Below, piece by piece: positions 3,472 to 37,867 of a DNA stretch of 38,362 bases (position 1 is its first letter; every line of letters starts with the position of its first letter). Location of the stretch: IMG/VR virus record IMGVR_UViG_3300044612_001141, positions 1 to 38,362 of that record. The stretch is one strand, 5' to 3'. The position numbers and the translations under genes were made by a program. Below the pieces are notes generated by a model. The model ran no database searches and was not told the DNA's origin. It was given only the letters and a program-made list of their open reading frames with translations. Source of the DNA: a virus.

Positions 3472-4410
3472 GTGCCGAAGATGTATTGCAAGGCAGGGCC
3501 GGCAACGCTCTCAGCGTATGCCGCCAACTACAACCTTCTCCGCGACGTGCGGCCGGAGACAGTCCGGCAGTACCAGATCACTGCCCGGATCTTTGAGGCG
3601 TGGGCCGGGCACCCCGTGCAGCTGGTGGAGCTCGACGAGCAGAGCGTCTCGGCGTGGCTGCGGGACTACGCGGCCTCCGGGGTCGTGCCGGAGACTGTCC
3701 GCTCGAAAAAGGTCGGCCTGCTGGCCCTATGGCGGGCCGCAGCCGACGAGGGCCTGTGCGAGCCTCCCACACGCCGTATCCGGTCCGTACGCGTGCCCTA
3801 CAAGGCTCCCACGTGCTGGACGTGGGAGGAGGTGTCCGCCCTCCTGACGGCCTGCCAGGGCCTCCAGCGGTGGCACAAGACGGGCCTCCGCCGGTCGGCT
3901 TGGTTCGACCTGGCTATCCGCATGGCTTGGGACACTGGGCTCCGTCAGGGCGATCAGTGGCGGCTGCCGGTGGCCGACATCCGACCAGACGGCGGAGTGA
4001 GCTTGGTGCAATCAAAGACCGGGCGGCCGGTAGTGTGCCAGTTGTCCGCATCGACAGTCGAGGCCCTGCGGGTGTCGCTCGAGCTCGCACCGCGGCAGCT
4101 GGTCACGCCCTGGCTGTCCAGCCACGAGACGTTCGACGATCAGTTTAAACGGCTGGTCCAGAAGGCAGGCCTCCGGCCGGGCACCTGGAAGTGGCTCAGG
4201 AGGGCCTCGGCCACCGACGTGGAGCTTCAGAGGCCCGGAGCCGCGTCGGCCCACCTGGGCCACGTGCCGGGCTCTAGGATCGCAGAGCGTAGCTACATCG
4301 ACCCGGCCCAGTTCTCACGCACCGCCACCACGCCACGCGAGCTTGTCGTGGCCGCGATTCAAAATAGGGGGGGGGGGGGGGGCAGGCTAAGGCTGGGCGA
4401 AACAGGGTAG
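3472..4410 (+). CDS. int: Tyrosine site-specific recombinase (integrase)
   Basis: This 312-aa protein is the only plus-strand gene. The N-terminal half (about 15-100) is a SAM-like core-binding domain. The catalytic domain shows R158 in TGLRQGD, K182 in QSKTGRP, box II KWLRRASAT (239-248) with R243, H261 and H264 in HLGH, and the nucleophile Y275 in RSYID. The usual His of the HxxR box is replaced by Lys240. Integrases join phage attP to a host attB; here the tRNA-Arg fragment lies just upstream. The start is GTG 3472 or ATG 3481; neither has a clear ribosome site. The last codons read through a run of 16 G, so the true C-terminus is uncertain, but all catalytic residues precede it. It ends 9 bases from the convergent Nmad1-like gene. 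Confidence 0.9.
   Translation: MPKMYCKAGPATLSAYAANYNLLRDVRPETVRQYQITARIFEAWAGHPVQLVELDEQSVSAWLRDYAASGVVPETVRSKKVGLLALWRAAADEGLCEPPTRRIRSVRVPYKAPTCWTWEEVSALLTACQGLQRWHKTGLRRSAWFDLAIRMAWDTGLRQGDQWRLPVADIRPDGGVSLVQSKTGRPVVCQLSASTVEALRVSLELAPRQLVTPWLSSHETFDDQFKRLVQKAGLRPGTWKWLRRASATDVELQRPGAASAHLGHVPGSRIAERSYIDPAQFSRTATTPRELVVAAIQNRGGGGGRLRLGETG
4367..4382 (+). repeat. G16 homopolymer at the integrase 3' end
   Basis: Sixteen consecutive G fall after the catalytic Tyr codon, in the tail of the integrase gene. As assembled, the frame adds five Gly and a short basic tail. One G fewer gives a stop within three codons; one more gives a different tail of about ten residues. It could be a slippage-prone tract or a sequencing error. 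Confidence 0.8.

Positions 4411-18286: not shown

Positions 18287-18290
<4 letters not shown>
17931..18290 (-). CDS. Fibre-associated protein of unknown function (119 aa)
   Basis: The start overlaps the collagen-like fibre stop (ATGA 18290-18287), so the two are co-translated. The product has a strand-rich N-terminus ([19 protein letters not shown]) and a helical C-terminus ([41 protein letters not shown]). A region of this type (ARQIRLxLxxxGxxxxxVExxIxxIPD) occurs in small proteins next to fibre genes in other phages and may be a fibre assembly factor or accessory; this is from memory of the pattern and uncertain. Confidence 0.6.
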
Positions 18291-19638
<1,348 letters not shown>

Positions 19639-19642
<4 letters not shown>

Positions 19643-19965
19643 CCGACTACCTCCACGAGGCCCTGCAACGCCGTACGCCGCACGCTGCCGGGTGCATCCC
19701 ACTCAAGACGCCAGCCGTACGTGCCGACCGGCAGGGCGGCTGTCTGCTGCTCCGTCAGGGCAATGTTGACGATACCGGCCGCTGCGTTGGTCAGCGTGGT
19801 CTGGAACGCCGCCACCGTGCTGCCAGTAACGAGCGACGTGATGACGGCCGACACCGTGTAGCCGGTCATCGTCGTAGGCGAGAAGTCGATGGTCGTGCCA
19901 AGCTCGTCGCCACGGCGAAGCGAGAGGCCAAGCTGGCCGGGAAGTTGTGTGTACGTGGAGCTCAT
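19639..19965 (-). CDS. BppU-like Ig-fold protein preceding the collagen-like fibre
   Basis: ATG 19965 overlaps the connector stop (ATGA). The 108-aa protein ([31 protein letters not shown]...) is a paralogue of the 121-aa protein at 10888-11253. It is coupled by GTGA to the collagen-like fibre. The same gene order (BppU-like then fibre) occurs twice in the genome, so this small protein probably anchors its fibre to the particle. Confidence 0.7.
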
Positions 19966-33339: not shown

Positions 33340-34443
33340 TCACTCCGCCAGCGGCATGATCACGCCGTGAACGTCGCCGCACTTGAGCCGCACGGCATCG
33401 CCCGGCTTCGCGGCCTGAATCTCCACATCCGGCTCGCTGTCCTTGGCCAAGCCAGCCAGGAAGTCGAGCAGGAACTTCGGGTCGAGCTTCACTGTGGCAG
33501 CGTGGCCGAACTCCACGATGTCGCACGTGACGCTAGACTCGCCAGCCTCGCTGCTCTGAGCGTGGAGGTGCAGGCCCTGCTGAGAGAACGAGAAGTCCAC
33601 GCCCTTGCTTGACTCGCTCGTGGTGATGGCCGCGGCCCGCGTGGCATCAGCCAGCAGCCCACGGCTCACAGTCGTCGCCTTGGTCGAGTTCTTCGGGAAC
33701 ACATCTCGCCACCTCGGGAACCGGCCTTCGACAAGCCGGGCCGTCACCACGGTCGACCCGATGGTACAGACCAGCGTGTTCGTGCTCGCCTCGAGCTCCA
33801 CGAGCTCCTCGCCGCCGGCCTCCTTGGCAATCTCGGCCAATAGCTTGGCCACCCGTTGCGGAATCAACGTCTCGGAGTCATCGACGGCCAGGTCGTGCTC
33901 GGCCTCGGCCATGGTGAGCCGCCGGCCGTCTGTGGCCACTACAGAGACCTTATCGCCCTTGACCTCGACCATCACGCCACCCAGTGCGTACCGGGTGCTT
34001 TTCATGTCGCAGGCTTCCACCACGGCATGCACCAGGCCGGCGAACTGGTCCGCTGGTAGCTTGATCCGGTTGGTCGCGTTCTCGGCCGTCATGGTCGGGA
34101 ACTCGGCCGGATCTTCCGTCGGCAGCGTCCAGGAGCCTCGCTTGGTCGCCAGAACGCAGCTGGTGTCCTGCGGCGTGATGGTGATCTCGTCGTCACGGCA
34201 CTCGGTCAGGATCGACCAGACCCGTGCGAACGGGAGCAAGAGCGCCGGGCCGTCGAACGGCACGGCCGCCGTCACCTGCACCTCGAGGTCGGTGCCGACC
34301 ACTTGGCCGCCCGAGATCAGCACGCTGCGGAGAATCGGCCGCGGCGTGCGGTCAGTCACCGCGCTTTTCACGCTCGAAAATGCCGCCTTGAGCGCCGCGA
34401 CGCTCAACACGATGCCATTGCGATTTTTGGTAGTCGTACCCAT
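33340..34443 (-). CDS. dnaN: Phage-encoded DNA polymerase III beta subunit (sliding clamp)
   Basis: The 367-aa protein has the three-domain clamp pattern: LKAAFSSVKSAVTDRTPRPILRSVLISGGQVVGTDLEVQV, GLVHAVVEACDMKSTRYALGGVMVEVKGDKVSVVATDGRRLTMAE (the typical TDGRRL box), and the C-terminal PKFLLDFLAGL and GVIMPL. It would encircle DNA and hold a polymerase. No polymerase gene is in the window, so it probably serves host Pol III or phage accessory factors. ATG 34443 follows AAAGGA at 8 bases. Confidence 0.93.
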   Translation of the reverse strand: MGTTTKNRNGIVLSVAALKAAFSSVKSAVTDRTPRPILRSVLISGGQVVGTDLEVQVTAAVPFDGPALLLPFARVWSILTECRDDEITITPQDTSCVLATKRGSWTLPTEDPAEFPTMTAENATNRIKLPADQFAGLVHAVVEACDMKSTRYALGGVMVEVKGDKVSVVATDGRRLTMAEAEHDLAVDDSETLIPQRVAKLLAEIAKEAGGEELVELEASTNTLVCTIGSTVVTARLVEGRFPRWRDVFPKNSTKATTVSRGLLADATRAAAITTSESSKGVDFSFSQQGLHLHAQSSEAGESSVTCDIVEFGHAATVKLDPKFLLDFLAGLAKDSEPDVEIQAAKPGDAVRLKCGDVHGVIMPLAE

Positions 34444-34552
34444 GTGAAGAATCCTTTCGCTTGAGGGACGCACCCACGGCGATGCCGAGGGCAAAAGTCA
34501 ATCCGTTGACCAGAACACCAGTAGCTAGAAACACTGCGTTTTCGACAGTCAT
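34352..34552 (-). CDS. Small membrane protein overlapping dnaN (66 aa)
   Basis: ATG 34552 overlaps the LexA-domain gene stop (ATGA), which suggests a real gene. The N-terminus (AVFLATGVLVNGLTFALGIAVGASLKRK) is one membrane helix followed by positive residues. The last third (about 30 codons) lies in the other frame across the first 92 bases of dnaN, an unusually long overlap, and its sequence may be unconstrained there. Confidence 0.55.
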   Translation of the reverse strand: MTVENAVFLATGVLVNGLTFALGIAVGASLKRKDSSHGYDYQKSQWHRVERRGAQGGIFEREKRGD

Positions 34553-34788: not shown

Positions 34789-35009
34789 GGTGTCACCTCG
34801 TTCAACAATTTCGTGGCCGTCTCCTGGCACAGCGTGTCGCCTTGGGCAAGGTCGAACGCGTGCGGGAAATGCTTGAGCAGCCGCCGGGCCTCCTGCCGGA
34901 CGACCGCAGGGATGCCCTTGAGACCGTCCGGCCCGTACGGACTGGACAGCCGGACGAGGAACGCACGCGTCCAGACGATCGCGGCAGTTCGCTCAGATGG
35001 CATAGTCAT
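34785..35009 (-). CDS. BPSL0761-like small protein (74 aa)
   Basis: The sequence MTMPSERTAAIVWTRAFLVRLSS... IPAVVRQEARRLLKHFPHAFDL fits the BPSL0761-type family found in phages and bacterial genomes (MTMPxERTxAV..TREFL..L....P..VRxEAxxLLRHYP..xDL). Its function is unknown. ATG 35009 has AAGGAGG and overlaps the replication gene stop (ATGA). Confidence 0.75.
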   Translation of the reverse strand: MTMPSERTAAIVWTRAFLVRLSSPYGPDGLKGIPAVVRQEARRLLKHFPHAFDLAQGDTLCQETATKLLNEVTP

Positions 35010-35854
35010 GTGGTGACCTCCTTGCGCAATTGGTTGACCATCTTCCGCCGCGTGTACTCAAAGTCGTCGGCGTCCTTGCCCTTGAATCCCTCGGCCGGTG
35101 GCTTCTCGTCTGGCGATCGGTAGCCGCCCGCAGGCCGCTGCTCCCGTGGGTTGTCGAACTGGCCGCCGAGCACCTTGTCGACGAAGCCTGGAGCCAGCAG
35201 CTGCGGAAGCGTTACCGGGTCGCGGAAGTAGCGGCACCTCGGCAGGGCGTCGATGGCCGCCAGGGCCTTCTCGAACCAGCCCTCCTCGGCCAGACGGTCG
35301 GCCACCTTGTCCGGCGGCGCCGGTAGCTTCCACGGTCGGCCAGTGCCGGTAGCCCAAGCCTTCCGTAGCGTCTCCCAGCCCGCCGGTTCCTCCTGAGAAA
35401 GCGCAGCGCTCCCGTGGGAAGAAGAAGAATTTCTATCTCTTCTATCTCTTCTATCTGGTGCGCCGGATCGCACGGGTGCGTGCGCTTGAGCGCACGCGGT
35501 AGTGCGCCCACGCGCACCAGAGGCCCGAGAAGCGTGCAAAGCCCGTGATTTTGCGGCCTGCGAGAACCGACGCTCCCATCCGGGGATCGCCACAGTTCCG
35601 TTCTCCGCGTCAATCACCAGCCAGCCCACTTCCTGGACCGCCAACCAGAACGCCTCGTCGCCGCCACAGATCCGGCCGAGGAGCCGCACTGACATCCGGG
35701 CGGTGCCGTCTGCACTGTTCAGCGAGGCCCAGCCCCAGAGCATGAGGAGCCGCCCGACGACCTGGTCGACCGGCAAACCGGTCGAGTCGACGAGCTCGAG
35801 CACCTCGGGCTTCTGGGGCAGGCAAACGTCGTATGGAACCCACTCACCGGCCAT
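35006..35854 (-). CDS. Replication initiator/replisome organiser containing the origin
   Basis: The 282-aa protein has an N-terminal winged-helix-like domain (MAGEWVPYDVCLPQKPEVLELVDSTGLPVDQVVGRLLMLWGWASLNSADG... VGWLVIDAENGTVAIPGWERRFSQ, residues 1-100), typical of phage O-like or DnaD-like initiators. A low-complexity middle (RASGARGRTTACAQAH... DRRDRRDRNSSSS) is encoded by the iterons and 9-bp repeats, as in lambda O. The C-terminal part (about 150-282) probably loads or contacts a helicase. ATG 35854 overlaps the methyltransferase stop by 11 bases with GGAGG upstream. Confidence 0.8.
   Translation of the reverse strand: MAGEWVPYDVCLPQKPEVLELVDSTGLPVDQVVGRLLMLWGWASLNSADGTARMSVRLLGRICGGDEAFWLAVQEVGWLVIDAENGTVAIPGWERRFSQAAKSRALHASRASGARGRTTACAQAHAPVRSGAPDRRDRRDRNSSSSHGSAALSQEEPAGWETLRKAWATGTGRPWKLPAPPDKVADRLAEEGWFEKALAAIDALPRCRYFRDPVTLPQLLAPGFVDKVLGGQFDNPREQRPAGGYRSPDEKPPAEGFKGKDADDFEYTRRKMVNQLRKEVTT
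35431..35457. repeat. AT-rich 9-bp tandem repeat beside the iterons (possible DNA-unwinding element)
   Basis: TTCTATCTC occurs twice and TTCTATCTG once, head to tail, with AT-rich bases also at 35421-35430. It is a clear composition dip in a GC-rich genome and abuts the iterons on one side, as a DNA-unwinding element would. Confidence 0.7.
35458..35517. other. ori: Replication origin iterons (three 16-bp dyads at 22-bp period)
   Basis: Three sites GTGCGCCGGATCGCAC (35458-35473), GTGCGCTTGAGCGCAC (35480-35495) and GTGCGCCCACGCGCAC (35502-35517), each separated by 6 bases. Their centres are exactly 22 bp apart (about two helical turns). Each is a dyad GTGCGC-N4-(G/T)CGCAC. They lie in the middle of the putative initiator gene, next to an AT-rich repeat: the layout of lambda ori. 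Confidence 0.8.
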
Positions 35855-37229
35855 CCGTGGCCTCCGTGGCTCCAAAGACGCGAGCGATCGACCCCTCGTG
35901 GGCCTTCTTGTCGATCTCGCAGGCGATGCACCTGCGATTCATCTGACGAGCCACCAGCGCCGTAGTCCCCCCACCAGAAAACGGCTCAAAGATCAGATCG
36001 TTTACGTTTGTAAAAATGTCGATCAGCTTCTCGACACCGTCTGCACTCTGCTGCCATTCGTGTGCGTCTTTCTCGACCTTCTCTCCCTCAATCACGTCGA
36101 TGAAATAGCGTTCGTGAGCCTGCACTTTTTGGCCGGCCGGCACGTTCTGAAACACAAGGATCGGCTTGTATTTCGTGTTCACCCTTCTCGGGTGAATTGT
36201 CGGCATGACGGTCTGCATGAATACGATCTGCCAGTAGAACGACAGGTGCTCCCCCATCCTCGCCATGCACTGATCCAGGTGCAGCTTGCCGCTGTAGGCA
36301 ATGCACAATCCGTGAGGCTTAAGAATTCGTGCCGCCACCTCAGAGAGCTGCGACCAGCAGCCGATGAATTCGTGAGGGTACGGCGGATCGGTGATAATGA
36401 TGTCTACGCTGCCATCCGGTATGTCCTTAGCAATCTCCACAAAATCACCAAGCCGCACCTCGACCAGCTCGTCCTTTGCCGTCTTCACCTTTCGCGCGGC
36501 CTTTTCGTTCCGCAGTTCGCGAATGGCCGCCTTTACTGACGTGCATGAATCGCCTTCATTGGTCAGCTTCTTCCAGACGGCCGCCGCGTCCTCGTCAGAC
36601 AGGCCGTATGCCTTGCCTGCCTTCTTGCCTGCCTCATAGGTGCCTGGCCGCTTGCCAAGATCAATCACGTCAGCCATCCGCAGTTTCCGCCCCCTGACTG
36701 TCTCGCCGTCGCGGATGAACTCGCTTTCCCGCAGCTCGTCTCGCATCAAGCCAAGAAGCGATGTCAGGCGGTCGATCGCCGACGCGTAGGCCCCGGCACG
36801 CTCAACGGTGGCGCGGCCCACGCCGAGCTCGTCGGCTACGGCCTGGCAGGTCTTCCCTGAAAAGTCCTCATTTTGAGGACTTTTCTCTGGCCTTCCGTGT
36901 GGCATCTTCCGCTGGTTGTATACCTGGCCGATCAGGTCCGCAGCGGCCTCCTTCGACAGGTTCCGCCGGCCAAGCTGATGCCGCAGCATCCAATCAATCA
37001 CCGCCTGCCTGTTTTCAAACGACATCCGCGTCGTTTTGTATTGAACGCCGAGCCGGTCGCAGATGGCCTTCCTGTTGTGGCCGTCAACCAGCACGTCGTC
37101 CTTGCCGTCTCGAGACCATACGACCAGAGGGTCTCGGCATCCTTCGGCCGAGATACTCGCCTCAAGGGCAGCCAGCTCGCCCGGCTTCAGTTTTGGTATG
37201 CGGGCCTCAAATTCCTTGTCAATCTTCAT
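35844..37229 (-). CDS. ParB-like/DNA methyltransferase fusion
   Basis: The 461-aa protein has an N-terminal ParB/sulfiredoxin-like domain (KLKPGELAALEASISAEGCRDPLVV, VLVDGHNRKAICDRLG with the DGHNR box at 49-53), an HTH-like middle (QAVADELGVGRATVERAGAYASAIDRL), and a C-terminal N6-adenine/N4-cytosine methyltransferase: DPPYPHEF (281-288) then EPFSGGGTTALVARQMNRRCIACEID (415-440), the beta-class motif order. It is probably a phage DNA methyltransferase; the ParB domain may give ATP/CTP-related DNA contacts. AAGGAG precedes ATG 37229; the start overlaps the next stop (ATGA). Confidence 0.9.
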   Translation of the reverse strand: MKIDKEFEARIPKLKPGELAALEASISAEGCRDPLVVWSRDGKDDVLVDGHNRKAICDRLGVQYKTTRMSFENRQAVIDWMLRHQLGRRNLSKEAAADLIGQVYNQRKMPHGRPEKSPQNEDFSGKTCQAVADELGVGRATVERAGAYASAIDRLTSLLGLMRDELRESEFIRDGETVRGRKLRMADVIDLGKRPGTYEAGKKAGKAYGLSDEDAAAVWKKLTNEGDSCTSVKAAIRELRNEKAARKVKTAKDELVEVRLGDFVEIAKDIPDGSVDIIITDPPYPHEFIGCWSQLSEVAARILKPHGLCIAYSGKLHLDQCMARMGEHLSFYWQIVFMQTVMPTIHPRRVNTKYKPILVFQNVPAGQKVQAHERYFIDVIEGEKVEKDAHEWQQSADGVEKLIDIFTNVNDLIFEPFSGGGTTALVARQMNRRCIACEIDKKAHEGSIARVFGATEATDGR

Positions 37230-37867
37230 ATCGCGGCTCCTTGCGTGTTCATCCATTCCGTAACGGTCCCAACAATCACCTCAGTAAATTCATCCTCCGA
37301 AAAGCAAATGATCCCGGCGTCGTTGTCCAACGAGATGACACTGATCGGAGGGCCGAATCTGTTTGGCTGCGTTTCAGCGCGAGGATTAAATCTGTCGGAG
37401 AAGATGTGTGAAGCGGGGACAACAAGGCAGGCTTGCCGCGAGACAAACGTGGTCTGGCCGCTCGCGTCCGCGATTGGCGACGAATAGCCGACCCAAAATC
37501 CAGGCCTTCCGGCTGCGTAGGCCTTGTGCAGTTCGCGGACCTTAGAACTGAATCGCCCGCGACCGTTTTCGTTGTTCTCGAAGACGGCGAACGGCCTGTA
37601 CGGCACGTTTATCTTTCGATACGGCCACGCGCCGCCCTGCCATTGTGTTTTCCTCTCCAGGTCGAGAACGCCAATCTCTTCTCCGTCGAGTGTGATCCTC
37701 GCGTCGATCTTGAACTTTGCGGCGTCACGCTCTGATGTCGGGCGGTTGTTCACAGTCATCTGGAGGTATCGCCCCTGCAGATTGAATCCGACCATGAGTC
37801 GCGACGAAAACGCTGCGTAGGCCTTGAACTCCATGTGCTGGGGGGTCTTCATGTCTTCAATGTTCAT
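37226..37867 (-). CDS. Putative PD-(D/E)XK nuclease-like protein beside the methyltransferase
   Basis: The 213-aa protein is unrecognised by name. It contains FKID55ARITLDGEEIGVLDLE71RK73, a D...ExK arrangement as in PD-(D/E)XK nucleases, in a strand-helix-strand context (residues 50-75), and WPYRKINVPYRPF after it. It sits just before the methyltransferase with an ATGA overlap. It could be a cognate restriction endonuclease, a DNA-processing nuclease, or neither. ATG 37867 has GGAGG at 5 bases. Confidence 0.6.
   Translation of the reverse strand: MNIEDMKTPQHMEFKAYAAFSSRLMVGFNLQGRYLQMTVNNRPTSERDAAKFKIDARITLDGEEIGVLDLERKTQWQGGAWPYRKINVPYRPFAVFENNENGRGRFSSKVRELHKAYAAGRPGFWVGYSSPIADASGQTTFVSRQACLVVPASHIFSDRFNPRAETQPNRFGPPISVISLDNDAGIICFSEDEFTEVIVGTVTEWMNTQGAAI

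What the first reader, a model, noticed from the sequence alone, without database searches (positions are those of the whole stretch)
35420..35517. Lambda-like replication origin inside the initiator gene
Three dyads GTGCGC-N4-(G/T)CGCAC occur at an exact 22-bp period and abut three 9-bp AT-rich repeats. The layout of iterons in the initiator gene with adjacent unwinding element matches lambda ori although the sequences differ. It predicts the N-terminal winged helix of the host gene product as iteron binder.
Basis: partly seen in the sequence, partly recalled or inferred. Interest (0 to 1): 0.75.

Follow-up and report, generated by a model that had tools for sequence, protein, structure and literature searches.

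The report
Phage replication origin inside initiator gene
This phage gene carries its own replication start site: three spaced DNA palindromes and an easily melted stretch lie inside the gene for the protein that most likely binds them, and in hundreds of related phages the palindrome sequence changes in step with two amino acids encoded just before it.

Summary
Three GTGCGC-N4-GCGCAC dyads at 35458, 35480 and 35502 lie exactly 22 bp apart and abut three 9-bp AT-rich repeats (35431-35457). They sit inside gene 35006-35854(-), a PHROG_2509 'replication initiation protein'. The AT-rich block holds the lowest-GC 36-mer of the 38,362-bp record. The replication-origin reading is strongly supported by comparison, not by experiment. 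Among 275 distinct relatives, 92% have repeated half-sites at the same codons, and 92% of nonredundant linkers carry a purine-rich tract right after. Rac YdaU, TL-2011b, CP2 and PAN70 share the layout. Half-sites fall on an 11-bp helical phase. Residues 107 and 111 alone predict the iteron class across lineages (79%, against 6% from winged-helix similarity). Helix codons plus iterons are replaced as a ~100-bp block between conserved flanks. Verdict: genuine gene-embedded origin, new variant of a known kind, with a testable initiator-iteron recognition code.

The parts
35006..35854 (-). Initiator gene (282 aa), PHROG_2509 / YdaU-like replication initiation protein
   Evidence: PHROGs E 3.7e-21; 79 IMG/VR relatives; tblastn to Rac ydaU, TL-2011b, CP2, PAN70
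35579..35854 (-). Codons 1-92: winged-helix domain; acidic (5 K/R, 12 D/E), probably the assembly/dimer scaffold
   Evidence: AlphaFold2 pLDDT about 95; charge count; invariant W5, W40, W78
35489..35560 (-). Codons 99-122: basic specificity helix. Invariant K102, R104, R110; specificity residues H107 (35534-35536) and A111 (35522-35524). Its 3' codons overlap the first iteron.
35502..35517 (.). Iteron 1 in gene order: GTGCGCGTGGGCGCAC on the gene strand
35480..35495 (.). Iteron 2: GTGCGCTCAAGCGCAC on the gene strand
35458..35473 (.). Iteron 3: GTGCGATCCGGCGCAC on the gene strand (one arm mismatch), next to the unwinding element
35419..35457 (-). DNA unwinding element: three 9-bp repeats (GATAGAAGA-type on the gene strand, 35431-35457) plus AAATTCTTC extension; purine-rich on the gene strand; lowest-GC 36-mer of the record
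35006..35377 (-). Codons 160-282: C-terminal domain, presumed helicase/loader recruitment (inferred; in TL-2011b this part is a Pfam DnaT domain)
   Evidence: no Pfam hit for the window protein; DnaT PF17948 1.1e-18 in the TL-2011b relative
33340..34494 (-). Phage-encoded sliding clamp (DnaN/beta) downstream of the initiator: replication-module context
   Evidence: Pfam DNA_pol3_beta domains, PHROG_947 1.2e-51
35844..37256 (-). ParB-like/N6-N4 DNA methylase gene immediately upstream, overlapping the initiator start (context)
   Evidence: PF01555 5.6e-16, PHROG_67

Best explanation
Interval 35419-35517 is the phage's replication origin, embedded in the gene of its own initiator. Dimers of the initiator bind the three dyads, which lie on one face of the helix (22 bp, about two turns). 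Recognition is by the basic helix just after the winged helix: invariant K102/R104/R110 contact the constant part and backbone, and residues 107 and 111 read the variable bases (H107/A111 for GTGCGC). Cooperative assembly, scaffolded by the winged-helix domain, strains and melts the abutting AT-rich purine/pyrimidine-asymmetric element. The C-terminal domain then recruits the replicative helicase, directly or through a DnaC/DnaT-type factor. Because the specificity helix and its iterons are encoded within about 110 bp, they can be exchanged together, which changes origin specificity in one step. Shown: layout, conservation, phasing, DUE composition, covariation, cassette replacement. Inferred: binding, melting, helicase loading, and the identity of the base-contacting residues.
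For: Initiator annotation. Predicted-structure neighbours are phage 'replisome organizer', 'replication initiator' and 'primosomal protein' models. In 275 distinct relatives an NNN-CG half-site occurs 3 or more times in the linker in 92% (35% elsewhere in the same genes) and 4 or more times in 71% (9%). Same-orientation half-sites are 11n +/-1 bp apart in 280 of 339 cases, 28% expected. A purine-rich tract follows in 134 of 145 nonredundant linkers, against 53 of 1105 windows elsewhere in the genes. The DUE is the lowest-GC 36-mer of the record. Rac ydaU, TL-2011b, CP2 and PAN70 carry TAACG-type dyads plus purine tract at the same codons, and Rac has a known origin, oriJ (PMC3945230). Residues 111 and 107 are the two columns most informative about half-site class. 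In pairs under 50% identical in the winged helix, residue 107 is identical in 211/260 same-class and 83/2093 different-class pairs; residue 111 in 220/260 and 124/2093. Cross-lineage prediction 50.8/64 from these two residues, 4/64 from winged-helix similarity, random column pairs median 6.6, maximum 27.3. In close pairs of different class, DNA identity is e.g. 92% / 46% / 93% for codons 1-104 / helix+iterons / purine tract (L020 vs L024).
Against: No experimental binding, melting or replication data. No GC-skew sign change at the site. No read coverage available. The tree-based sign test has only 2-7 independent pairs and cannot reach significance, although the pairs for TAA, TCA and GTC classes go the expected way. 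H107 is not needed for every GTGCG-class member (L291, L373 have A107, though A111 is kept), so the code is two-position and degenerate. No recognisable helicase or loader was found among the window genes tested, and the C-terminal domain has no family match.
Confidence: 0.86

Rival explanations
1. The array is an origin, but covariation of helix residues with iterons is only linkage: a DNA block is exchanged as a whole and the helix residues hitchhike, while another surface binds the DNA.
For: The helix codons are directly adjacent to the iterons, and the block is replaced as a unit between conserved flanks.
Against: Same-class pairs under 50% winged-helix identity keep residues 107/111 identical in 81-85% of cases while the variable helix positions as a whole agree at only 41%: selective retention, not block copying. 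K102/R104/R110 are invariant in 90 diverse sequences. The winged helix is acidic.
Confidence: 0.15
2. The dyads are an operator for a repressor or autoregulator, and the AT-rich block is incidental.
For: Dyads bound by a winged-helix protein are typical of operators.
Against: They lie mid-gene rather than at a promoter, almost always just 5' of a purine-rich tract (134/145); the dyad class is linked to the host gene's own product; the same layout occurs in Rac ydaU.
Confidence: 0.04
3. The dyads act as RNA hairpins (attenuator or translational control) in the mRNA.
For: GC-rich inverted repeats would fold in RNA.
Against: Isolated same-orientation half-sites also keep the 11-bp helical phase, which RNA hairpins do not need; the sequence switches with two amino acids of the protein; the purine tract is not a U-run terminator on the gene strand.
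Confidence: 0.02
4. It is a codon-level by-product of a low-complexity protein linker.
For: The region encodes a disordered linker (pLDDT below 50).
Against: The 22-bp period puts the copies in three frames, so the peptide has no repeat; synonymous recoding rarely makes the array (14/20,000); rare AGA codons occur only in the DUE.
Confidence: 0.01

Closest known systems
Bacteriophage lambda O protein and ori-lambda
   Same: Origin inside the initiator gene at nearly the same place (iterons at nt 349-433 of O; here nt 338-397), four 18-bp dyad-like iterons 20-24 bp apart, followed on the 3' side by a purine-rich AT-rich tract on the coding strand; initiator binds iterons, AT-rich tract melts (PMC7466680).
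   Different: No detectable homology to O (hhalign probability 0.5% and 0.2%); different half-site family (NNN-CG), exact 22-bp spacing, and no lambda P-type partner seen.
YdaU / PHROG_2509 'replication initiation protein' of Rac, TL-2011b, Xanthomonas CP2, Pseudomonas PAN70
   Same: Homologous N-terminal domain (hhalign 99.5%), same specificity helix, dyads and purine tract at the same codons.
   Different: TAACG-type instead of GTGCG half-sites; different C-terminal domains (DnaT in TL-2011b) and, in Rac and PAN70, a DnaC-like gene next door.
DnaD/DnaT-type phage replisome organizers and DUF1376 proteins
   Same: Predicted fold neighbours include 'replisome organizer', DnaD-like and DUF1376 models.
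   Different: No Pfam match of the window protein to DnaD, DnaT or DUF1376; relation is by predicted fold only.
Geminivirus Rep and its iterons (analogy only)
   Same: Iterons of close relatives differ and must match the cognate Rep (PMC12548392 abstract).
   Different: Unrelated circular ssDNA viruses; their iterons lie upstream of the rep gene, not inside it.

Membership tests
PHROG_2509 / YdaU-like phage replication initiators | N-terminal domain homologous to the profile | tested here: met
   E 3.7e-21 over residues 1-154; A1 vs A3 99.5%
PHROG_2509 / YdaU-like phage replication initiators | K-x-R-x5-R basic helix after the winged helix | tested here: met
   K102, R104, R110 invariant in 90 sequences including the window
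PHROG_2509 / YdaU-like phage replication initiators | Iteron array followed by purine-rich tract right after the helix codons | tested here: met
   found here to be general in the family
PHROG_2509 / YdaU-like phage replication initiators | Acts as replication initiator in vivo | not testable with these tools
   needs a mini-replicon assay
Lambda O family | Sequence homology to lambda O | tested here: not met
   hhalign 0.5%, 0.2%; no Pfam hit
Lambda O family | Iterons inside the initiator gene with adjacent AT-rich unwinding region | tested here: met
   (shared layout: works like, not membership)
Lambda O family | Adjacent P-type helicase loader gene | tested here: inconclusive
   next gene is an unmatched 74-aa ORF; no loader family found among the genes tested
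Plasmid iteron initiators (RepE/pi/RepA) | Rep_3-type double winged-helix initiator binding 22-bp direct-repeat iterons outside the gene | tested here: not met
   no Pfam match; single winged helix; array inside the gene
DnaD/DnaT primosomal proteins | DnaD or DnaT domain | tested here: not met
   absent in the window protein, present in the TL-2011b relative

The most novel reading that the evidence does not exclude
A widespread phage initiator family carries a portable origin-specificity cassette of about 110 bp: the codons of one DNA-reading helix followed directly by that helix's own binding sites. Two helix residues (107 and 111) form a readable code for the iteron half-site, and phages repeatedly switch origin specificity by replacing the cassette between constant flanks (18 class changes on the winged-helix tree of 80 sequences).
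Probability: 0.68. Interest if true: 0.76.

Novelty: new variant of a known kind. Interest (0 to 1): 0.66.

Why it matters
Gene-embedded origins are known from lambda, but this locates the origin of a very large, poorly studied phage/prophage family (YdaU/PHROG_2509; at least 590 IMG/VR places, and prophages in gamma- and betaproteobacteria, Planctomycetes and Verrucomicrobia) from sequence alone. It gives a concrete, cheaply testable recognition code for how initiators choose their origin, and would allow origin and replication-compatibility typing of phages in metagenomes. It also suggests why origins sit inside initiator genes: specificity and target travel together.

Tried and rejected
Direct homology with lambda O: rejected. 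DNA-level relatives of the window in named phages: none. Window-type initiator in 84,980 bacterial/archaeal species genomes: none confirmed. Profile search of a diverse alignment in genome contigs failed for lack of conserved stretches. Family search over 663 genomes (class of the Limnohabitans locus, phylum of a Planctomycetes locus) gave only 5 carriers, so the viral collection was used instead. PDB sequence and fold searches gave only weak, non-significant matches, many of them winged-helix regulators. GC skew as origin marker: uninformative. Automated half-site calling first miscounted GCG because GCGC overlaps itself; GCG was excluded afterwards. A regex gene finder missed divergent members and was replaced by fixed tblastn starts. 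Tree-based independent-pairs test has too few pairs. Ten literature searches in the held library found no description of an origin in ydaU/PHROG_2509 or of this code; the subscription papers on oriJ are not held, so priority is not settled.

Full report
OBSERVATION. Gene 35006-35854(-) contains, on the plus strand, GTGCGC-N4-(G/T)CGCAC dyads at 35458-35473, 35480-35495 and 35502-35517, start to start exactly 22 bp, abutting three 9-bp repeats TTCTATCT(C/G) at 35431-35457. It is the only triple of 22-bp-spaced dyads in the 38,362-bp record; 14 of 20,000 synonymous recodings of the gene reach it. The lowest-GC 36-mer of the record starts at 35419. All five AGA codons of the gene are in this block, while AGA is 6 of 287 Arg codons in nine other genes. 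Because 22 is not a multiple of three, the copies are read in three frames and the peptide (ARGRTTACAQAHAPVRSGAPD) shows no repeat: selection is on DNA.

CONTEXT. The record is an IMG/VR virus record with terminase, portal, major head, tail, integrase, exonuclease, Sak4-like, RusA, HNH and DnaN genes, i.e. probably a temperate tailed phage. The gene itself matches PHROG_2509 and PHROG_9474 'replication initiation protein' (3.7e-21 and 4.3e-14). Downstream lie a 74-aa ORF and a sliding clamp; upstream a ParB-like/N6-N4 methylase. In relatives the commonest neighbours are a small wHTH protein (29/48 loci) and RusA (34/48).

RELATIVES. Of 79 IMG/VR relatives, nearly all that are long enough show an array at the same codons followed by a purine-rich AGAGA..GATAGA tract. 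Among 62 analysed the best period is 22 bp in 51 and 23 in 11, but the dyad sequence differs: GTGCGC, GGGCGC, ACGCGC, CTGCGC, CGGCGC and others. tblastn links the N-terminal domain to Rac ydaU, TL-2011b, CP2 and PAN70. These carry TAACG-type dyads and a purine tract such as AGAGGAAGAGGAAGATATA in the same place. The TL-2011b C-terminus is a DnaT domain, and Rac and PAN70 have a DnaC-like gene next door. Further scans gave prophages in Pseudomonas, Burkholderiales, Enterobacterales, Planctomycetes, Akkermansia and others and at least 590 IMG/VR places.

GENERALITY. In 275 distinct genes, an NNN-CG half-site is repeated 3 or more times in the linker in 92% and 4 or more in 71%, against 35% and 9% for windows elsewhere in the same genes. 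Same-orientation half-sites are spaced mostly at 11, 12, 22, 23, 34-36 and 44-45 bp; 280 of 339 are within one base of 11n, 28% expected. Opposed half-sites have class-fixed CG-CG distances (8 for GTG/CTG, 7 for GGG/ACG, 9 or 20 for TAA/TCA). A purine-rich tract follows in 134 of 145 nonredundant linkers, against 53 of 1105 control windows; the pyrimidine version occurs in 10. This is the anatomy of an origin: phased initiator sites plus adjacent unwinding element. Rac is known to carry an origin, oriJ (PMC3945230); whether its mapped location is ydaU could not be checked in the held library.

WHAT READS THE ITERONS. AlphaFold2 on 90 diverse sequences gives a confident winged helix (residues 16-89) followed by a separate helix 99-122 (pLDDT about 70). 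The only invariant columns are W5, W40, W78 and K102, R104, R110. Residues 1-92 are acidic (5 K/R, 12 D/E), residues 93-125 basic (7 to 1). Within the window's clade, class information jumps from 0.05 of the entropy at residues 91-104 to 0.42 at 105-114 and falls again in the C-terminal domain. Across 80 nonredundant sequences the two most informative columns of the domain are 111 and 107. T107/V111 goes with TAACG, A/S/G107 and K/Q111 with TCACG, K107/Q111 with AGACG, E/D107 and K111 with GTCCG, A/S107 and H111 with GGGCG, E107/N111 with ACGCG, H107/A111 with GTGCG. In pairs less than 50% identical in the winged helix, residue 107 is the same in 211/260 same-class but 83/2093 different-class pairs, residue 111 in 220/260 and 124/2093. 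Using only relatives below 40% winged-helix identity, residues 107+111 predict the class in 50.8/64, winged-helix similarity in 4/64, random pairs of winged-helix columns in a median of 6.6 and at most 27.3.

CASSETTE. The winged-helix tree needs 7 class changes among 43 rows of the window's clade, with 2-3 per class forced by well-supported branches, and 18 among 80 diverse rows. In close pairs of different class, DNA identity is 76-92% in codons 1-104, 39-47% in helix+iterons and 87-98% in the purine tract; a same-class pair keeps 72% in the middle. So specificity helix and iterons are replaced together between constant flanks. Block hitchhiking alone does not explain why distant same-class pairs agree at 107/111 but not along the rest of the helix.

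MECHANISM. Shown: layout, phasing, DUE, conservation, covariation, replacement. Inferred: dimers bind each dyad through the basic helix, cooperative assembly melts the purine-rich AT block, and the C-terminal domain recruits the helicase (DnaT/DnaC-type in relatives, unknown here). No GC-skew sign change occurs at the site; coverage could not be tested.

COMPARISON. Lambda ori has the same plan (iterons at nt 349-433 of O, purine-rich AT tract on the coding strand), but O is not detectably homologous. It works like lambda ori; it is a member of the YdaU/PHROG_2509 initiators, not of the O family. Fold neighbours are phage replisome organizers, DnaD-like and DUF1376 proteins. Known kind: gene-embedded iteron origin. 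What appears new, as far as the held literature shows (ten searches, no description found), is its generality in this family, the reading helix encoded next to its own target, and the two-residue code.

Noticed in passing
33340-34494 (-): Phage-encoded DNA polymerase III beta clamp (all three Pfam beta domains) just downstream of the initiator; found in only 7 of 48 relatives with long flanks.
   Followed up: partly
35844-37256 (-): ParB-like N-terminus fused to an N6/N4 DNA methylase, overlapping the initiator start by 11 bp. Iterons of this class contain GCGC, so methylation of the origin is conceivable but untested.
   Followed up: no
4367-4382: Run of 16 G near the end of the integrase-like ORF 3472-4410: possible slippage/phase-variation site or assembly error.
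   Followed up: no
L072 / L345 linker: GTCCG-class origins use 11-bp direct repeats (TGTCCGACTTT TGTCCGACAAA TGTCC) rather than closely opposed dyads, so the initiator may bind as head-to-tail monomers in this class.
   Followed up: partly
L282 and L259 linkers: Linkers that mix two half-site classes (TCACG and GTCCG/other), possibly intermediates of a specificity switch.
   Followed up: no
NC_015459.1 (Pusillimonas, 41 kb, L403) and CP088505.1 (E. coli, 52 kb, L404): Circular records listed as plasmids carry this initiator; in the Pusillimonas record phage genes are nearby and the next gene is an ATP-binding protein. Possible phage-plasmids replicating from this origin.
   Followed up: partly
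18287-19702 (-): Collagen-like tail fibre protein with tandem repeats.
   Followed up: no
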